Shown: positions 8,784 to 14,283 of the stretch, piece after piece
Layout: the number at the start of each line of letters is the position of its first letter
How positions within the stretch are numbered: position 1 is the stretch's first letter
From: Solirubrobacterales bacterium
Lineage (GTDB): Bacteria > Actinomycetota > Thermoleophilia > Solirubrobacterales > 70-9
NCBI GenBank assembly: GCA_017882505.1
Contig: JADGPJ010000010.1
Location: forward strand, 1 to 48,666
Reading direction: 5' to 3'
DNA: 48,666 nt
Made by a program: the position numbers and the translations under genes
Notes under the pieces: model-generated
Seen by the model: only the letters and a program-made list of their open reading frames with translations
Databases searched by the model: none
What the model was told of the DNA's origin: nothing

Positions 8784-9446
8784 TCAGTACGGAGGCAGAT
8801 CCTCGTACCAGAGGCCGAGGGTGCGGAAAGCCCGCCAGAACCGCTGCTTGGCCCCCTCCTCGTCGAGCGAAACATCGATGTCGGGCACATAGAGCGCGTC
8901 GATCGTCGGTGTGAAGGCCTGGATCTCCCCCTCGCGCTGCTCGACCGGCCGCGAGAGCGGCACCTGGAGGCCGTTGAGGATGGCGAGCGCGGGTTCGCCC
9001 ATGACGACGACGATCTTCGGCTGCACGATCGCCAGCTCCTCGACCAGGCGGGCGACGCACTCCTGCGGCGCCAGGTCGGGCTCGGCGATCGGGCACTTGA
9101 CGCACAGCGTTCCGTAGACGACGAGCGGATCGATGCCGAGGCGCTTGAAGCTTTTCATCAGCGCGTTGCCGGCGCGACCGTAGAAGGCGACGCCCTCCTC
9201 GATCTCCGCCGTCATCGGCGCCTGCTTGAGCATGAAGACGTCGGCCTGGGGATGGCCGGAACCGAGGACCGGCATCAGCTTGCCGCGCGGGCAGTGCTGG
9301 CACCCCTGGATCTCCCGGGTCATCTGGTTGAGCTCGCGAATCGCTCGCTCCAGGTACTTCTCGCGGATCTCGTCGTCGGTGCCTCGCATCGCCGACTCAA
9401 TCTTTGACGAGCCGGGCGCGGCTCCTTTGCCGCGCCTCGCCTGCAT
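8784..9446 (-). CDS. uracil-DNA glycosylase superfamily protein (family 4-like) with altered motifs
   Basis: 220 aa. The four-cysteine pattern of iron-sulfur family 4/5 UDGs is present: C49 and C52 (GCQHCP), C118 (VKC, with another Cys at 115) and C130. The fold-typical FYGRAGNALMKSF segment is kept. The first catalytic motif, normally GEAPG, reads KQAPM (about 74-78), and the usual second motif HPS/HPA near the C-terminus is replaced by YVPDID. It may recognise a different lesion or have lost glycosylase activity. The start is uncertain: ATG at 9446 or an internal ATG at 9389 (201 aa); neither has a good Shine-Dalgarno. It lies 26 nt after the PHP fusion gene. Confidence 0.7.
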   Translation of the reverse strand: MQARRGKGAAPGSSKIESAMRGTDDEIREKYLERAIRELNQMTREIQGCQHCPRGKLMPVLGSGHPQADVFMLKQAPMTAEIEEGVAFYGRAGNALMKSFKRLGIDPLVVYGTLCVKCPIAEPDLAPQECVARLVEELAIVQPKIVVVMGEPALAILNGLQVPLSRPVEQREGEIQAFTPTIDALYVPDIDVSLDEEGAKQRFWRAFRTLGLWYEDLPPY

Positions 9447-9472: not shown

Positions 9473-10735
9473 CTAACCGCGCTTGCGGGGTTTGCCGCCG
9501 CGCACCGGCTTGGCGTCGAGCACGCGCCGTTTGGGCGCCTTCGGCCGGCCGGCCGTCTGCAGCAGCTTCAGGGTCTGCACGTAGACCAGGTTCTTGTGCT
9601 TGCGGGTGATGTCGGCGTCGCGCATCGCCTCGAGGAACTCGGCCGGGCCGTCGAAGTCGTGAATCCGTACCCGGACGCTGCCGAGCCCCTGGGCGACGTG
9701 GCTGTCGGAGCCGGCGCCGGGGACGATCCGGTACTTGCGGGCGAAGCGCTCGGCCTCCTCGTTGAACGCGGTCACCGCCACCCGCGGGTTGAAGACCTCG
9801 AGGATGTCGACCTCCTCGATGATGTCCATCAGGTGCTCGTAGTCCGGGACCGAGTGGAAGCGGTCGAACGGGTGCGGCACGTAGACGAGCCCGCCCTGGC
9901 GGCGGATCTCGGCGATCGTCTCCGCCATCGTCAGCCCCTTCGGGATCTTCTCCTCGAGGAAGAGGCCGATCACCTCTCCCTGCTCGCCCGTCTTCACCTC
10001 CGCGCCGACGATCACCTTGATGTCGCCCATCTCGGCGGCGATCCGGCGTGCCTCCAGCGCCCCGGAGAGCTCGTTGTGGTCGGTGATCGCGATCGCGCCG
10101 AGGCCGCGGTCGCGCGCCGTCTGCAGCAGCACCTCGACCGGGGTCGCGCAGTCGGTCGAGTGGTCGGTGTGCATGTGCAGGTCGACCTCGATCAGCTCGC
10201 GCTCGGAGATCCGCGCCCTCAGCTCGGGGTCGCCGCTGTCGTCGTGACGGCGGGCGACGAGCCGGCGGTAGAGAGCCTCCAACTCGCTCGCGACCGCGGC
10301 CCAGTCGCGGCTTCCCGCGGCCGGCTCGACCAGCTCGTAGGAGGCGGGGAAGTAGCTCTCCAGCAGCTGCGCCGTCGCCGGGCTGGTCACCGTGCGGGCG
10401 TCGATCCGGCCGAAGAAGATCTCGACCAGCGGTCGTGCGACCTGGGTCGAGAGCACCCGCTCCTGCGGGGCGTGGAAGGTGGCGACGTTGAGGGAGAAGG
10501 AGTGGCGCAGCGCCGCCGAGGCGACGCTGGGGGCGAACGGCTCGTGGACGTGGACGATGTCGAACGGGGTCGACTTCAGCAGCTTCTTGACCGGTTGACC
10601 GGTCCCCAGCCGCAGCACCTCGTGGCCGCGCCGCTCGAGCTCGTCGGAGACGCGATCGGCGAACTCGTTGATCGCGTTGTCGACGCCGCGCCGGAAGGGC
10701 GCCACCTGAGCGATAGAGAGCGGTGCGGCAGGCAC
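9473..10735 (-). CDS. fusion of PimA-like GT4 N-domain and PHP phosphoesterase domain
   Basis: 420 aa. Residues 6-138 match the acceptor-binding Rossmann domain of GT4 glycosyltransferases, especially PimA-like ones (VHVHEPFAPS at 61-70, then NVATFH). The donor-sugar domain is missing; only a DWAAVASELEALYRRL helix (144-159) like the last GT4 helix remains. Residues 184-350 form a complete PHP metallo-phosphoesterase domain with H187, H189, D219-H220, E246, H288 and D344-S-H346 as metal ligands. It therefore looks like a phosphatase with a PI-lipid-binding module. The context (ino1, phosphatidyltransferase, PAP2) suggests action on an inositol phosphate or PI-phosphate; this is inference. Start: GTG 10735 preferred, TTG 10747 possible. 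The C-terminus is basic (RGGKPRKRG). Confidence 0.8.
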   Translation of the reverse strand: MPAAPLSIAQVAPFRRGVDNAINEFADRVSDELERRGHEVLRLGTGQPVKKLLKSTPFDIVHVHEPFAPSVASAALRHSFSLNVATFHAPQERVLSTQVARPLVEIFFGRIDARTVTSPATAQLLESYFPASYELVEPAAGSRDWAAVASELEALYRRLVARRHDDSGDPELRARISERELIEVDLHMHTDHSTDCATPVEVLLQTARDRGLGAIAITDHNELSGALEARRIAAEMGDIKVIVGAEVKTGEQGEVIGLFLEEKIPKGLTMAETIAEIRRQGGLVYVPHPFDRFHSVPDYEHLMDIIEEVDILEVFNPRVAVTAFNEEAERFARKYRIVPGAGSDSHVAQGLGSVRVRIHDFDGPAEFLEAMRDADITRKHKNLVYVQTLKLLQTAGRPKAPKRRVLDAKPVRGGKPRKRG

Positions 10736-10751
10736 GGTCGAAGCCAAGCAT

Positions 10752-10776
10752 AGGAGCCCGCCGGAGGCGGGCTCCT
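10752..10776 (-). terminator. strong hairpin after ino1
   Basis: An 11-bp perfect stem (AGGAGCCCGCC with its complement) with a 3-nt loop begins 4 nt after the ino1 stop. No long U-run follows. It would reduce read-through from ino1 into the PHP fusion gene or stabilise the ino1 mRNA 3' end. Confidence 0.55.
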
Positions 10777-10780
10777 TGAC

Positions 10781-11959
10781 TCAGGCCTGCGCGGCGCTCG
10801 GAGCGTCGGCGGAAGCGCTGCCCTTCGCCGACTTGCGAGCGTTCGCCGCGATGTACTTCTCGGTCTGTTCCCGCGCCTCGTCGTCGGGGCGCTGGGTGTG
10901 CGGCGACTTCATCAGGTAGCTGGAGGGCCCGTCGAGCTGCCCGGAGATGCCGTTGTTGAGCGCCAGCTTGATCAGCCTCACGGCGTCGATCACGACGCCG
11001 GCCGAGTTCGGCGAGTCCCAGACCTCGAGCTTCAGCTCGACCGTCAGCGGCACGTCGCCGAAGGCTTTGCCCTCGACCCGGATGTGCGCCCACTTGCGGT
11101 CGGTCAGCCAGGGGACGTAGTCGGAGGGGCCGACGTGAACGTCCTCGGCAGGCAGGTCGTGGCCCATGATCGAGGTGACGGCGTTGGTCTTCGACTCCTT
11201 CTTGGAAGCCAGCCGCTCGCGCTCGAGCATGTTGTAGAAGTCCATGTTGCCGCCGACGTTGAGCTGGCTGGTCCGCTCCATCCGCACGCCGCGGTCATGG
11301 AAGAGGCGAGCGAGCTGGCGGTGGACGATCGTCGCCCCGACCTGGGACTTGATGTCGTCGCCGATGATCGGCAGGCCGGCCTCCTTGAAGCGCTTGTCCC
11401 AGTAGTCCTCGCGGGCGATGAAGACCGGCAGGCAGTTGACGAAGCCGACGCCGGCGGTGAGCGCCTGCTCGACGTACCACTTGGTCGCCTCCTCGGAGCC
11501 GACCGGCAGGTAGCAGACGAGGACGTCAGCCTTGGTCTCTTTGAGGATCCCGACGATGTCGGCGGTCTCCCCGGGAGCCTTGGTGATTTTCTCTTTCAGG
11601 TACTTGCCGAGACCGTCGTGGGTCATGCCGCGCTCGACCTTGATCCCGATCGGGGGCACGTCGGCGAATTTGATCGTGTTGTTCTGACCCGACCACATCG
11701 CCTCCGAGAGGTCCTTGCCGACCTTCTCGCCGTCGATGTCGAAGGCGGCGACGAATTCAACGTCGCGGACGTGGTAGCCGCCGAGTTCGACGTGCATCAG
11801 GCCGGGAACTTCCTCGCCGGGATCGGCGTCCTTGTAGTACTGGACGCCCTGGATGAAAGAGTTGGCGCAGTTGCCGACGCCGACGATCGCGACTCGGACC
11901 TTCTCGTCGGTGCGACCGATGCCGTTCGTGCTGCCGTTTGCTCCGTTGCTCTTACTCAT
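10781..11959 (-). CDS. ino1: inositol-3-phosphate synthase
   Basis: Converts glucose 6-phosphate to 1L-myo-inositol 3-phosphate with NAD, the first step to inositol lipids. The 392-aa protein is the short actinobacterial/archaeal type. Motifs: [14 protein letters not shown] (NAD loop), [48 protein letters not shown] and [17 protein letters not shown]. The start is the ATG after an AGGAGG at 12-nt spacing (MSKSNGANG); the frame extends further upstream without similarity. The C-terminus is an Ala/Ser-rich tail. It sits between the CDP-alcohol transferase and the PHP fusion on the same strand. Confidence 0.96.
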
Positions 11960-12019
11960 GAAATTAGAAGTCCTCCTGGATCGCGCTGAGTCGCTGAACA
12001 CACCCGACGGCCTAGCTGG

Positions 12020-12709
12020 TTACAGCTCCTCCGCCTCGCCGCCGTCGCTCTGGGCGCCGGCCTCGGCCAAAAGAAGCTCGTTTCGCACATGCAATACCCG
12101 CTGGAAAACCGTGAAGATGGTCAGGGCGGCCATCACGTAGATCGACGGCGCCAGCAATTCGAAATCGCCAATGCCAGCGCCCTTGGCGAAGATCAAGCCA
12201 ATCGAAAGTAGCACCACCCTGACCGGCCGCGTCGCCAACCCGACCTTGCACTCGACCCCGAGTGCCTCGGCCCGGGCGCGCGTGTAGGAGACCATCAGCG
12301 AGCCGAGCACGGCGACGACGCACATCGCGGCGGCGAAGTCTTCGCCCTGGGCGGCGAAGTAGCCGGCGACCGCGGCGAGCACGATCCCCTCCTCGATCCG
12401 GTCCAGGGTCGAGTCGAGGAAGGCGCCGAAGAGGGTGCCCTTGCCGGACATCCGCGAGTAGCGCCCGTCGAGCGTGTCCATCACCGAGCCGAGGATGAAG
12501 GCGACGCCGGCGAGGAAGAAGAGGCGCTGGGTGACCAGGGCCGCCGCGACCAGGTTCCCGATCAGGCCGACCGTCGAGATCGCGTTCGGGGTCAGGCGGG
12601 ACTCGATCAGGCGCTCACGCGCGTAGGAACGGAGCTCCTGCCCGTTGCGGCTCGCCGCGCGGCCGTTGCGACGGCCGCCGGGGGCCCTTGGGGGCGCCGA
12701 GGGTTCCAT
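12020..12709 (-). CDS. pgsA: CDP-alcohol phosphatidyltransferase, probably phosphatidylinositol-phosphate synthase
   Basis: A 229-aa integral membrane enzyme. The CDP-alcohol signature D-x2-DG-x2-(A/S)R-x8-G-x3-D-x3-D is complete, with DTLDGRYSR followed by GAFLDSTLD. A later GLATRPVRVV segment fits actinobacterial enzymes that join inositol-3-phosphate to CDP-diacylglycerol. Its adjacency to ino1 makes inositol phosphate the likely acceptor rather than glycerol phosphate; this is inference. About five to six hydrophobic helices are visible. TAGCCT ends 7 nt before the ATG, so the gene probably has its own leaderless promoter. Confidence 0.88.
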   Translation of the reverse strand: MEPSAPPRAPGGRRNGRAASRNGQELRSYARERLIESRLTPNAISTVGLIGNLVAAALVTQRLFFLAGVAFILGSVMDTLDGRYSRMSGKGTLFGAFLDSTLDRIEEGIVLAAVAGYFAAQGEDFAAAMCVVAVLGSLMVSYTRARAEALGVECKVGLATRPVRVVLLSIGLIFAKGAGIGDFELLAPSIYVMAALTIFTVFQRVLHVRNELLLAEAGAQSDGGEAEEL

Positions 12710-12716
12710 TGCCGTG

Positions 12717-12722
12717 AGGCTA
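12717..12722 (-). promoter_or_regulatory. -10 box of pgsA (leaderless)
   Basis: TAGCCT on the minus strand, exactly 7 nt before the pgsA ATG; no Shine-Dalgarno is present. No clear -35. Confidence 0.45.
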
Positions 12723-12766
12723 GACGGTTGCGAGGAGGTTGGGGCGCCGAGACCCGGACTTTCGGG

Positions 12767-13546
12767 CTACGCCTCGGCCTCCTGTTGAGTCGTCGTCCGC
12801 CAGGCCCATGCCTCCGGCCGGGCAGGGGCGATCAGCCGGTGGGCGATCACAACGGCCGCGACGGCGACCATCCAGCCGAGCGCCACGTCGACCCAGTAGT
12901 GATTGGCCGTGACGATCACCACCCAGGCGATCAGCAGCGGCCAGAAGGCCCAGAAGGCTTTCGAGAGCCGGCTGCGACAGACCAACACGCCGGTGCCGCC
13001 GATCATCAGCGCGAAGGCGCAGTGCATGCTCGGCACCGCCGCGTAGGGGTTGATGAAGATTTTCGCCAGGGCCGAGTCGTGGTTGACGTTGGAGAAGTCG
13101 GTGATCGTGTCGACGAGACCGTGTTCGGGGAACATCCGCGGCGGCGCGGTCGGGTAGAACGTGTAGCCGATCAGGGCCAGGCCCATCGAGGCGACGAACA
13201 TGTTGCGGACGAAGTAGTAGGACTCGTTGCGGAAGAGGTAGAGCCAGACGAGGAAACCGAGGGCGACCGAGAACTGGGCGTTGAGGTAGAGCTGGTTGGC
13301 GACGTCGATCAGCCAGTGGGCGGGCAGGAAGAACGCCTGCAGGCTGGGCTCGAAGAAGGTGCGGGTCGACTGCTCGAAATCGATCACCTGGGCGCCGTGG
13401 GCGATCGCGTCGGCGCGCTGGGAGTCGGCGATCCCGCGGACCAGCTCGTAGGCGATGTCGACGCCGACGAGGATCGCGATCTGGCGCCCGGCATCCCCCC
13501 AACCCTTGGGCAGCCTGGCGGTGACGCTGGCTAAGGCGCGAGACAC
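12767..13546 (-). CDS. PAP2-superfamily membrane protein (Aur1/inositolphosphotransferase-like)
   Basis: 259 aa with about six hydrophobic segments. The PAP2 motifs are recognisable: YPTAPPRMFPEHG (first motif), NPYAAVPSMHCAFAL (second motif with the catalytic His) and VTANHYWVDVALG (third motif, His-Asp). The layout NPYAA-PS-H and T-NHYW-D is that of the PAP2/Aur1-like group, which includes phosphoinositol transferases, more than of diacylglycerol-pyrophosphatases. It could dephosphorylate PI-phosphate or move phosphoinositol between lipids; both are inferences from the ino1/pgsA context. The GTG start is preceded by TACAAT at exactly 7 nt, implying a leaderless mRNA. Confidence 0.82.
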   Translation of the reverse strand: MSRALASVTARLPKGWGDAGRQIAILVGVDIAYELVRGIADSQRADAIAHGAQVIDFEQSTRTFFEPSLQAFFLPAHWLIDVANQLYLNAQFSVALGFLVWLYLFRNESYYFVRNMFVASMGLALIGYTFYPTAPPRMFPEHGLVDTITDFSNVNHDSALAKIFINPYAAVPSMHCAFALMIGGTGVLVCRSRLSKAFWAFWPLLIAWVVIVTANHYWVDVALGWMVAVAAVVIAHRLIAPARPEAWAWRTTTQQEAEA

Positions 13547-13593: not shown

Positions 13594-14283
13594 ATGAGCT
13601 GGAAAAGACCAGAGAAGCGCCGCGTGCGGGCGATCCGCGATCGCCTGCGGGAGATGTACGGGGAGCCGGTCAACGAGCCGCACGGCCACCCGATCGCCGA
13701 GCTGATCAAGACGGTGCTCTCCCAGCACACCAACGACCGCAACCGGGATCGGGCCTTCGCCGCATTGCGCGAGCGGTTCCCCTCCTGGGAGGAAGTCCGC
13801 GACGCGCCGGTGGAGGAGGTCGAGGAGGCGATCCGCCCCGGCGGGCTCGGCAAGCAGAAGGCGCCGCGGATCCAGGCGATCCTCGAGCAGCTCGGCGAGC
13901 ACCCGGATCTCGACTGGACCGAGACGGCGCCGCGCGAGGAGTCGCTCGACTTCCTGCTCTCGCTGCCGGGGGTGGGGCGCAAAACCGCCGCCTGCGTGCT
14001 GATCTTCACCTGGGGCATCCCGGAGATCCCGGTCGACGTCCACGTCCACCGGGTCGGCGGCCGGCTGGGACTGTTCCCGCCGAATGCCCCTTTCGGGCGT
14101 GCCCACGACGAGATGCTTGCCGTCGTCGACCGGGACGACGCCTACGAGCTGCACATGAACCTGATCCGCCACGGGCGCACGCTCTGCCGCCCGAAACCGC
14201 GCTGCGAGGAGTGCGCGCTGCGGCGGATGTGCCCCTGGTACCGCGCCCGGGAGAGCGGAGCGAAGGAGCGAGATCTCCGGTGA
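13594..14283 (+). CDS. endonuclease III-like DNA glycosylase/AP lyase
   Basis: A 229-aa HhH-GPD base-excision-repair enzyme. The helix-hairpin-helix LPGVGRKTAACV carries the catalytic Lys, and VDVHVHRVGGRLGL the catalytic Asp. The C-terminal cluster C-x5-C-x2-C-x5-C (CRPKPRCEECALRRMC) will bind [4Fe-4S]. It probably removes oxidised pyrimidines. The spacing of the first two Cys (5 rather than 6 residues) and the VDVHVHR segment differ slightly from E. coli Nth, so a related family (Nth-like or UV-endonuclease-like) is possible. Leaderless start from TAGGGT. Confidence 0.88.
   Translation: MSWKRPEKRRVRAIRDRLREMYGEPVNEPHGHPIAELIKTVLSQHTNDRNRDRAFAALRERFPSWEEVRDAPVEEVEEAIRPGGLGKQKAPRIQAILEQLGEHPDLDWTETAPREESLDFLLSLPGVGRKTAACVLIFTWGIPEIPVDVHVHRVGGRLGLFPPNAPFGRAHDEMLAVVDRDDAYELHMNLIRHGRTLCRPKPRCEECALRRMCPWYRARESGAKERDLR

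What the first reader, a model, noticed from the sequence alone, without database searches (positions are those of the whole stretch)
9473..13546. PimA acceptor domain fused to a PHP phosphatase inside an inositol-lipid cluster: candidate PI-phosphate phosphatase
Seen: ino1, a CDP-alcohol phosphatidyltransferase and a PAP2-type gene lie on one strand with a protein that keeps the acceptor-binding half and last helix of a PimA-like GT4 but has a complete PHP metal site in place of the sugar-donor domain. Known: in mycobacteria the synthase makes PI-phosphate from CDP-DAG and inositol-3-phosphate, a phosphatase must then give PI, and PimA's N-domain binds PI; to my knowledge that phosphatase is unassigned. 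Inference: this fusion binds PI-phosphate with the GT half and dephosphorylates it with the PHP half.
Basis: partly seen in the sequence, partly recalled or inferred. Interest (0 to 1): 0.85.

Follow-up and report, generated by a model that had tools for sequence, protein, structure and literature searches.

The report
PimA-derived PHP enzyme, inositol-lipid operon
A class of soil and water bacteria keeps, close to its inositol-lipid synthesis genes, an unusual enzyme made of a metal-dependent hydrolase joined to a worn-down sugar transferase of the lipid-binding PimA type; it is a good but untested candidate for the missing phosphatase of that pathway.

Summary
The gene at 9473-10747(-) joins a trimmed GT4 N-domain, nearest solved relative PimA, to a complete PHP metal site, downstream of PAP2, phosphatidylinositol-phosphate (PIP) synthase and ino1 genes on one strand. 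Relatives occur in 261 of 299 class genomes. In all 12 families sampled the gene lies on the PIP synthase's strand, mostly within 2 kb, at most 6.5 kb. Of 121 proteins compared, 86 keep a full PimA-like GT-B before PHP, so PHP did not replace the donor domain: the donor site decayed and the domain was lost on three branches, including the window's genus, while PHP stayed conserved. PgpA, the Bacteroides PIP phosphatase family, is absent (0 of 50 genomes). Conexibacter woesei has PI as its main polar lipid, so some PIP phosphatase must exist. One genome without a recognisable ino1 still keeps PIP synthase and fusion together. Against: in family f5 the PHP has lost its metal ligands or is absent; standalone PHP relatives elsewhere are unlinked (0 of 20); the cluster's PAP2 is a rival; the window protein's PimA half is itself trimmed. 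I judge a PIP phosphatase most likely (0.45); no activity is shown.

The parts
9473..10747 (-). GT4(N-domain)-PHP fusion, 424 aa from TTG 10747; GTG 10735 is perhaps the likelier start, in register with start codons of near relatives
10328..10720 (-). PimA-like GT4 N-domain, residues 10-140, shorter by one helix and one strand than in the full-length model
10256..10303 (-). residues 149-164, the last helix of the GT-B fold, kept although the donor domain before it is gone
9548..10195 (-). PHP domain, residues 185-400; presumed metal ligands H191, H193, H224, E250, H292, D348, H350 invariant in 46 aligned proteins (ligand roles recalled from the family)
9476..9550 (-). polybasic C-terminal tail, residues 400-424
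   Evidence: net charge at least +4 in 46 of 46 aligned proteins
10781..12001 (-). ino1, inositol-3-phosphate synthase (likely start ATG 11959, by eye)
12020..12709 (-). CDP-alcohol phosphatidyltransferase, probable phosphatidylinositol-phosphate synthase
12767..13546 (-). PAP2_3 family protein with PSMH and NHYWVD stretches; rival lipid phosphatase or phosphoinositol transferase
8784..9443 (-). uracil-DNA-glycosylase-like gene (name recalled, not tested against a family library), conserved downstream neighbour, probably unrelated in function

Best explanation
The PHP half is a metal-dependent phosphomonoesterase that turns phosphatidylinositol 3-phosphate, made by the nearby PIP synthase from CDP-DAG and Ino1's product, into PI on the cytosolic side of the membrane. 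The GT half descends from a PimA-type mannosyltransferase fused to it. It has lost sugar-donor function and is kept as a lipid or membrane recognition and scaffold module, helped by a polybasic tail. Shown by computation: the fusion, its PimA-type ancestry, class-wide linkage to PIP synthase, decay of the donor site and repeated donor-domain loss, conservation of the PHP site outside family f5. Inferred: substrate, reaction, side of the membrane, role of the GT remnant.
For: Linkage to PIP synthase, same strand, in all 12 families sampled: 20 of 20 loci, 18 of 20 more, the two misses being contig ends, and none missing among 35 named loci with at least 8 kb upstream; gaps between the two reading frames have medians of 1.3-1.4 kb and a maximum of 6.5 kb (the sets share some genomes). 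G017 has no real ino1 (best 18.9 bits) yet keeps PAP2, PIP synthase and fusion together, which points to a step after the synthase. PgpA, the Bacteroides PIP phosphatase family, in 0 of 50 class genomes. Conexibacter woesei's main polar lipid is PI (PMC3035278, passage); the cluster is seen in C. arvalis (L130), not checked in C. woesei itself. PAP2 is unlinked in f8 (0 of 5), f9 (0 of 4) and f12 (0 of 2, one cut by a contig end), where the fusion stays linked. GT ancestry: L056 to PimA 6e-44; the full-length model L117 has PimA as top fold, TMt 0.82. Both EX7E glutamates are kept in 4 of 121 rows, most of them Solirubrobacterales; the no-C-domain state needs three changes on the tree, all forced by starred branches. 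dN/dS in 12 pairs without the C-domain: PHP 0.09-0.25, GT half 0.19-0.58.
Against: Family f5: in 9 of 9 genomes read the fused PHP aligns without DH and DxH, and HxH has become for example RxR (pattern read in 7 of the 9); f5 genome G007 has GT4 without PHP in that slot; PIP synthase is found in all 9 f5 genomes of the phylum draw. Standalone PHP relatives in other classes are not linked to PIP synthase, ino1 or PimA (0 of 20). A PAP2 gene in the cluster could be the phosphatase. Linkage may be partly inertia: the nth and UDG-like genes are conserved neighbours too. The window protein's PimA half is trimmed. A test for an amphipathic helix before the tail was negative. NCBIfam's nearest PHP model is the CehA/McbA metallohydrolase domain, 74.8 bits under a cut-off of 80, and some PHP enzymes are diesterases (PMC11656708, passages).
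Confidence: 0.45

Rival explanations
1. The PAP2_3 protein is the PIP phosphatase (or a phosphoinositol transferase), and the PHP fusion does another step in inositol-lipid metabolism.
For: PAP2 lies upstream of PIP synthase in the window and is near it in 18 of 20 loci; PSxH found in 23 of 23 cluster PAP2 proteins listed and an NHxxxD stretch in 19 of them; a weak match to the Bacteroides phosphoinositol dihydroceramide synthase model (23 bits, cut-off 480).
Against: Unlinked in f8, f9, f12 and f5 where the fusion is still near PIP synthase (L233 of f12 is cut by the contig end); the Bacteroides relative is a transferase next to a separate PIP phosphatase (PMC9246714 passages); PAP2 active sites usually face outward (recalled).
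Confidence: 0.17
2. The PHP half is a phosphodiesterase that cleaves PI, a PI mannoside or CDP-DAG, for turnover or flux control.
For: Closest NCBIfam model is the CehA/McbA domain, not a phosphatase equivalog; PHP diesterases exist (PMC11656708 passages); linkage fits any inositol-lipid step.
Against: In the passages seen, PHP diesterases are few and phosphatase is the usual PHP activity; the pathway needs a phosphatase, and among the gene families I searched for none other lies in the f8, f9 and f12 clusters (neighbours there were not scanned against a family library).
Confidence: 0.13
3. The fusion acts mainly as a non-catalytic lipid-binding scaffold or regulator of PIP synthase or PimA.
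For: In f5 the PHP metal ligands are lost, and in the two f5 rows scored the first EX7E glutamate is lost, while the gene stays near PIP synthase.
Against: Outside f5 the PHP ligands are kept: all 46 rows of A2 and the 8 rows of f6-f12 shown; the PHP half has the lower dN/dS in each of the 12 no-C pairs and 4 full-length pairs.
Confidence: 0.12
4. It is the class's missing histidinol-phosphate phosphatase, or the mycothiol MshA2 phosphatase, or a DNA-repair nuclease working with the adjacent UDG-like gene.
For: No HisN orthologs were found in Thermoleophilia (PMC5516325 passages), and TIGR01856 is over its cut-off in only 17 of 26 class genomes; MshA2 also acts on an inositol phosphate (recalled); the UDG-like gene is near in 79 of 80 named loci.
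Against: The own genome has a separate HisJ-type protein above its cut-off (209.8 against 202 bits); MshC over cut-off in 0 of 26 genomes; the UDG-like gene is not near in f9 (0 of 4) where PIP synthase and ino1 are.
Confidence: 0.05

Closest known systems
PimA (GT4 phosphatidylinositol mannosyltransferase; PDB 2gej, 4n9w)
   Same: Best sequence and fold match of the GT half; full-length relatives have its two-domain fold; in other classes PimA-like genes lie close to PIP synthase in the loci I fetched, as the fusion does here
   Different: Donor domain absent here and decayed in most relatives; N-domain also trimmed; fused to PHP
PHP phosphoesterases (RNase AM 7ug9/9etk, TM0559 2anu, PsfC 7rty)
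   Same: Fold and metal-ligand pattern
   Different: 16-23% identity; substrate unknown; fused to a GT4
CehA/McbA family metallohydrolase domain (NF038032)
   Same: Nearest NCBIfam profile of the PHP half
   Different: 74.8 bits, below its cut-off of 80
Bacteroides BT_1522-1526 inositol-lipid cluster with the PIP phosphatase BT_1525
   Same: Gene set: inositol-phosphate synthase, PIP synthase, an AUR1-like protein (here PAP2_3) and a phosphatase slot
   Different: There the phosphatase is PgpA-like; PgpA is absent here (0 of 50 genomes) and the slot may be held by a PHP protein

Membership tests
PHP superfamily | Pfam PHP and PHP_C over the gathering score | tested here: met
   56 and 44.3 bits against 26.4 and 21.3
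PHP superfamily | HxH, DH, E, H and DxH metal ligands present | tested here: met
   Invariant in 46 rows; lost in f5 relatives
PimA / GT4 glycosyltransferase | Both Rossmann domains | tested here: not met
   C-domain absent in the window protein
PimA / GT4 glycosyltransferase | EX7E donor motif | tested here: not met
   Absent with the domain; both Glu kept in 4 of 121 rows
PimA / GT4 glycosyltransferase | PimA-type N-domain ancestry | tested here: met
   tree had no outgroup beyond PimA-like GT4s
PIP phosphatase (functional class) | Release of phosphate from phosphatidylinositol phosphate | not testable with these tools
   Needs an assay
PgpA-type PIP phosphatase (BT_1525) | PF04608 match | tested here: not met
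   No PF04608 match in the window protein, and none in 50 class genomes
HisJ histidinol phosphatase | TIGR01856 over 90.2 bits | tested here: not met
   18.4 bits; separate HisJ-type protein in the genome
CehA/McbA metallohydrolase | NF038032 over 80 bits | tested here: not met
   74.8 bits; a near miss
Mycothiol pathway (MshA/MshA2) | Other mycothiol genes in the genome | tested here: not met
   MshC over cut-off in 0 of 26 genomes; MshB and MshD not searched

The most novel reading that the evidence does not exclude
This is an actinobacterial PIP phosphatase, unrelated to the Bacteroides enzyme, that arose as a fusion of two consecutive steps (PIP phosphatase and PimA). It then turned its mannosyltransferase half into a non-catalytic lipid-recognition module, with the donor domain discarded on three separate branches.
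Probability: 0.4. Interest if true: 0.78.

Novelty: new variant of a known kind. Interest (0 to 1): 0.62.

Why it matters
In actinobacteria PI is made through PIP, and the enzyme that removes the phosphate was still unidentified for mycobacteria in a 2019 paper (PMC6506517, passages). A class-wide gene near PIP synthase gives a single cloned protein to test. The family also shows, across one class, a glycosyltransferase wearing down to its acceptor-side remnant while the fused metal enzyme stays conserved.

Tried and rejected
Replacement of the donor domain by PHP: rejected, 86 of 121 rows are full GT-B plus PHP. Rosetta-stone support from other classes: standalone PHP relatives and separate PimA-like genes occur in the same genomes, but the PHP genes are not near PIP synthase, ino1 or PimA (0 of 20; some regions were cut by contig ends); their recurrent neighbours include purine genes in some families and a PAP2 gene in others. 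Inserts between ino1 and fusion in 10 named loci: no recurring lipid gene recognised by eye in the ORF starts, not scanned. Amphipathic helix before the tail: hydrophobic moment like shuffles. Co-occurrence of fusion and PIP synthase inside the class: too universal to inform. Mycothiol, HisJ and DNA repair: see rivals. An extra phosphatase near PIP synthase in f5: ORFs of two loci listed, none recognised by eye, not scanned. Prior art: searches listed no paper that I could recognise as being on such a fusion; of papers not opened only titles and abstract beginnings were seen.
Full report
What is there. On the minus strand, in transcription order, lie a PAP2_3 gene (13546-12767), a CDP-alcohol phosphatidyltransferase (12709-12020), ino1 (12001-10781, likely start 11959), the fusion (10747-9473) and a UDG-like gene (9443-8784) (the UDG name is recalled). 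The transferase is closest to archaetidylinositol- and phosphatidylinositol-phosphate synthase models, under their cut-offs. The window is a whole contig, C19, of a 2.63 Mb assembly. Titles of named relatives are mostly Solirubrobacterales or Solirubrobacteraceae.

The fusion. Residues about 10-140 are a GT4 N-domain whose best PDB sequence match is PimA; residues 149-164 are the last helix of the GT-B fold; residues 185-400 are PHP plus PHP_C; the last 25 residues are strongly basic. In all 46 aligned relatives the tail has net charge of at least +4 (median +9.5), while the median of the rest is -13.5. The AlphaFold2 model is confident (pLDDT 87.1, pTM 0.84). Foldseek matches RNase AM, TM0559 and PsfC for PHP and PimA for the GT half.

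History. Of 299 genomes of the class 261 have a match at E up to 1e-20. Of the 38 without, 20 are listed and 12 of these are family f5, whose copy is divergent. Of 121 proteins compared, 86 have a GT C-domain, 32 have none and 3 are partial; a few rows may be cut by contig ends, and 80 of the 121 come from the named, mostly Solirubrobacterales set. Full-length ones have open frames of roughly 650 aa. The full-length model from Paraconexibacter has PimA as its best fold (TMt 0.82), and the GT of L056 (family f6) matches PimA at 6e-44 against 2e-17 for MshA. A tree without a distant outgroup puts the fused GTs beside PimAs that are close to PIP synthase in other classes, but the fused set is not one clean clade (2 changes). 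Both EX7E glutamates are kept in 4 of 121 rows, one of f6 and three of f8. On a PHP tree (quick search, SH-aLRT support only) the no-C state needs three changes, all forced by starred branches: the window's genus with its neighbour, a Solirubrobacteraceae group, and part of f10. Changes alone do not tell gain from loss; loss is my reading. f10's remnant is the shortest. In 12 pairs without the C-domain the GT half is still under purifying selection (dN/dS 0.19-0.58), less than PHP (0.09-0.25). In 4 full-length pairs the values are 0.14-0.78 for the N-domain, 0.22-1.10 for the C-domain and 0.11-0.36 for PHP.

Linkage. In 20 loci of families f1-f4, f6 and f7, ino1, PIP synthase and the UDG-like gene are near the fusion in 20 of 20, PAP2 in 18 and nth in 15. 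In 20 further loci of f5 and f8-f12, PIP synthase is near in 18 (both misses at contig ends), ino1 in 18, the UDG-like gene in 16 (0 of 4 in f9) and PAP2 in 5. Of 80 named loci 67 show ino1, 55 PIP synthase, 49 PAP2 and 79 the UDG-like gene, many being cut by contig ends; of the 35 with at least 8 kb upstream none lacks ino1 or PIP synthase and one lacks PAP2. Wherever both are seen, PIP synthase and fusion are on one strand (20 of 20, 18 of 18, 55 of 55), with gaps up to 6.5 kb. These sets share some genomes. In G017 no ino1 is found (best 18.9 bits) while PAP2, PIP synthase and fusion remain together. As a contrast, 20 standalone PHP relatives from other classes have no PIP synthase, ino1 or PimA nearby.

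Pathway logic. PIP synthase makes PIP, which must be dephosphorylated. In Bacteroides deletion of PgpA-like BT_1525, in a cluster with inositol-phosphate synthase, PIP synthase and an AUR1-like transferase, makes PIP accumulate (PMC9246714, abstract and passages). No PgpA was found in 50 class genomes searched. PI is the main polar lipid of Conexibacter woesei (PMC3035278, passage). A Solirubrobacter strain is reported with PI and PI mannosides in one section of a paper, while a species description in the same paper lists no PI (PMC10722151, passages). So some other PIP phosphatase is needed, and the conserved cluster offers PHP or PAP2. PAP2 is unlinked in f8, f9, f12 and f5; the fusion is linked in all 12 families, though with a dead PHP in f5.

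Against. In f5 the fused PHP has lost DH and DxH in 9 of 9 genomes read (14 loci, several of one genome); HxH is replaced, for example by RxR, in the 7 of 9 where I read the stretch by pattern. G007 of f5 has only a GT4 there, with ino1 elsewhere. All 9 f5 genomes of the phylum draw have PIP synthase, so f5 must use another enzyme, or the role of the fusion is not what I infer. In the window's protein the PimA half lacks a helix and a strand of the N-domain, so its lipid binding is inference. The own genome has another, full GT4, fused to an LPG_synthase_TM region, which could do PimA's work; this is not shown.

Verdict. Observation confirmed; interpretation plausible, improved by class-wide linkage and by the history of the fusion, but without any biochemical proof. 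The most likely reading is PIP phosphatase (0.45).

Noticed in passing
L235, L236, L159, L162, L164-L166, L187-L191, L193, L194 (family f5): The fused PHP domain has lost its metal-ligand motifs while, in the loci checked (L235, L236), the gene stays near PIP synthase: a pseudo-PHP family.
   Followed up: partly
L242:7596-8852: In f5 genome G007 the slot between PIP synthase and the UDG-like gene holds a GT4 without PHP; ino1 lies elsewhere in that genome.
   Followed up: partly
L237:6761-9088 (own genome, contig C56): A 776-aa reading frame joins a two-domain PimA-like GT4 to a lysylphosphatidylglycerol-synthase-like membrane region.
   Followed up: partly
window 8784-9443 and 13594-14283: A UDG-like gene and a divergent HhH-GPD (nth-like) DNA-repair gene flank the inositol-lipid cluster and are conserved neighbours in much of the class.
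   Followed up: partly
window about 10754-10779: G+C-rich inverted repeat between ino1 and the fusion, without a T run; possible attenuator. Seen by eye only.
   Followed up: no
L200, L201, L206, L212, L214, L216 (family f26): Standalone PHP relatives in another class share a neighbouring large PAP2-domain protein (one member scanned).
   Followed up: partly
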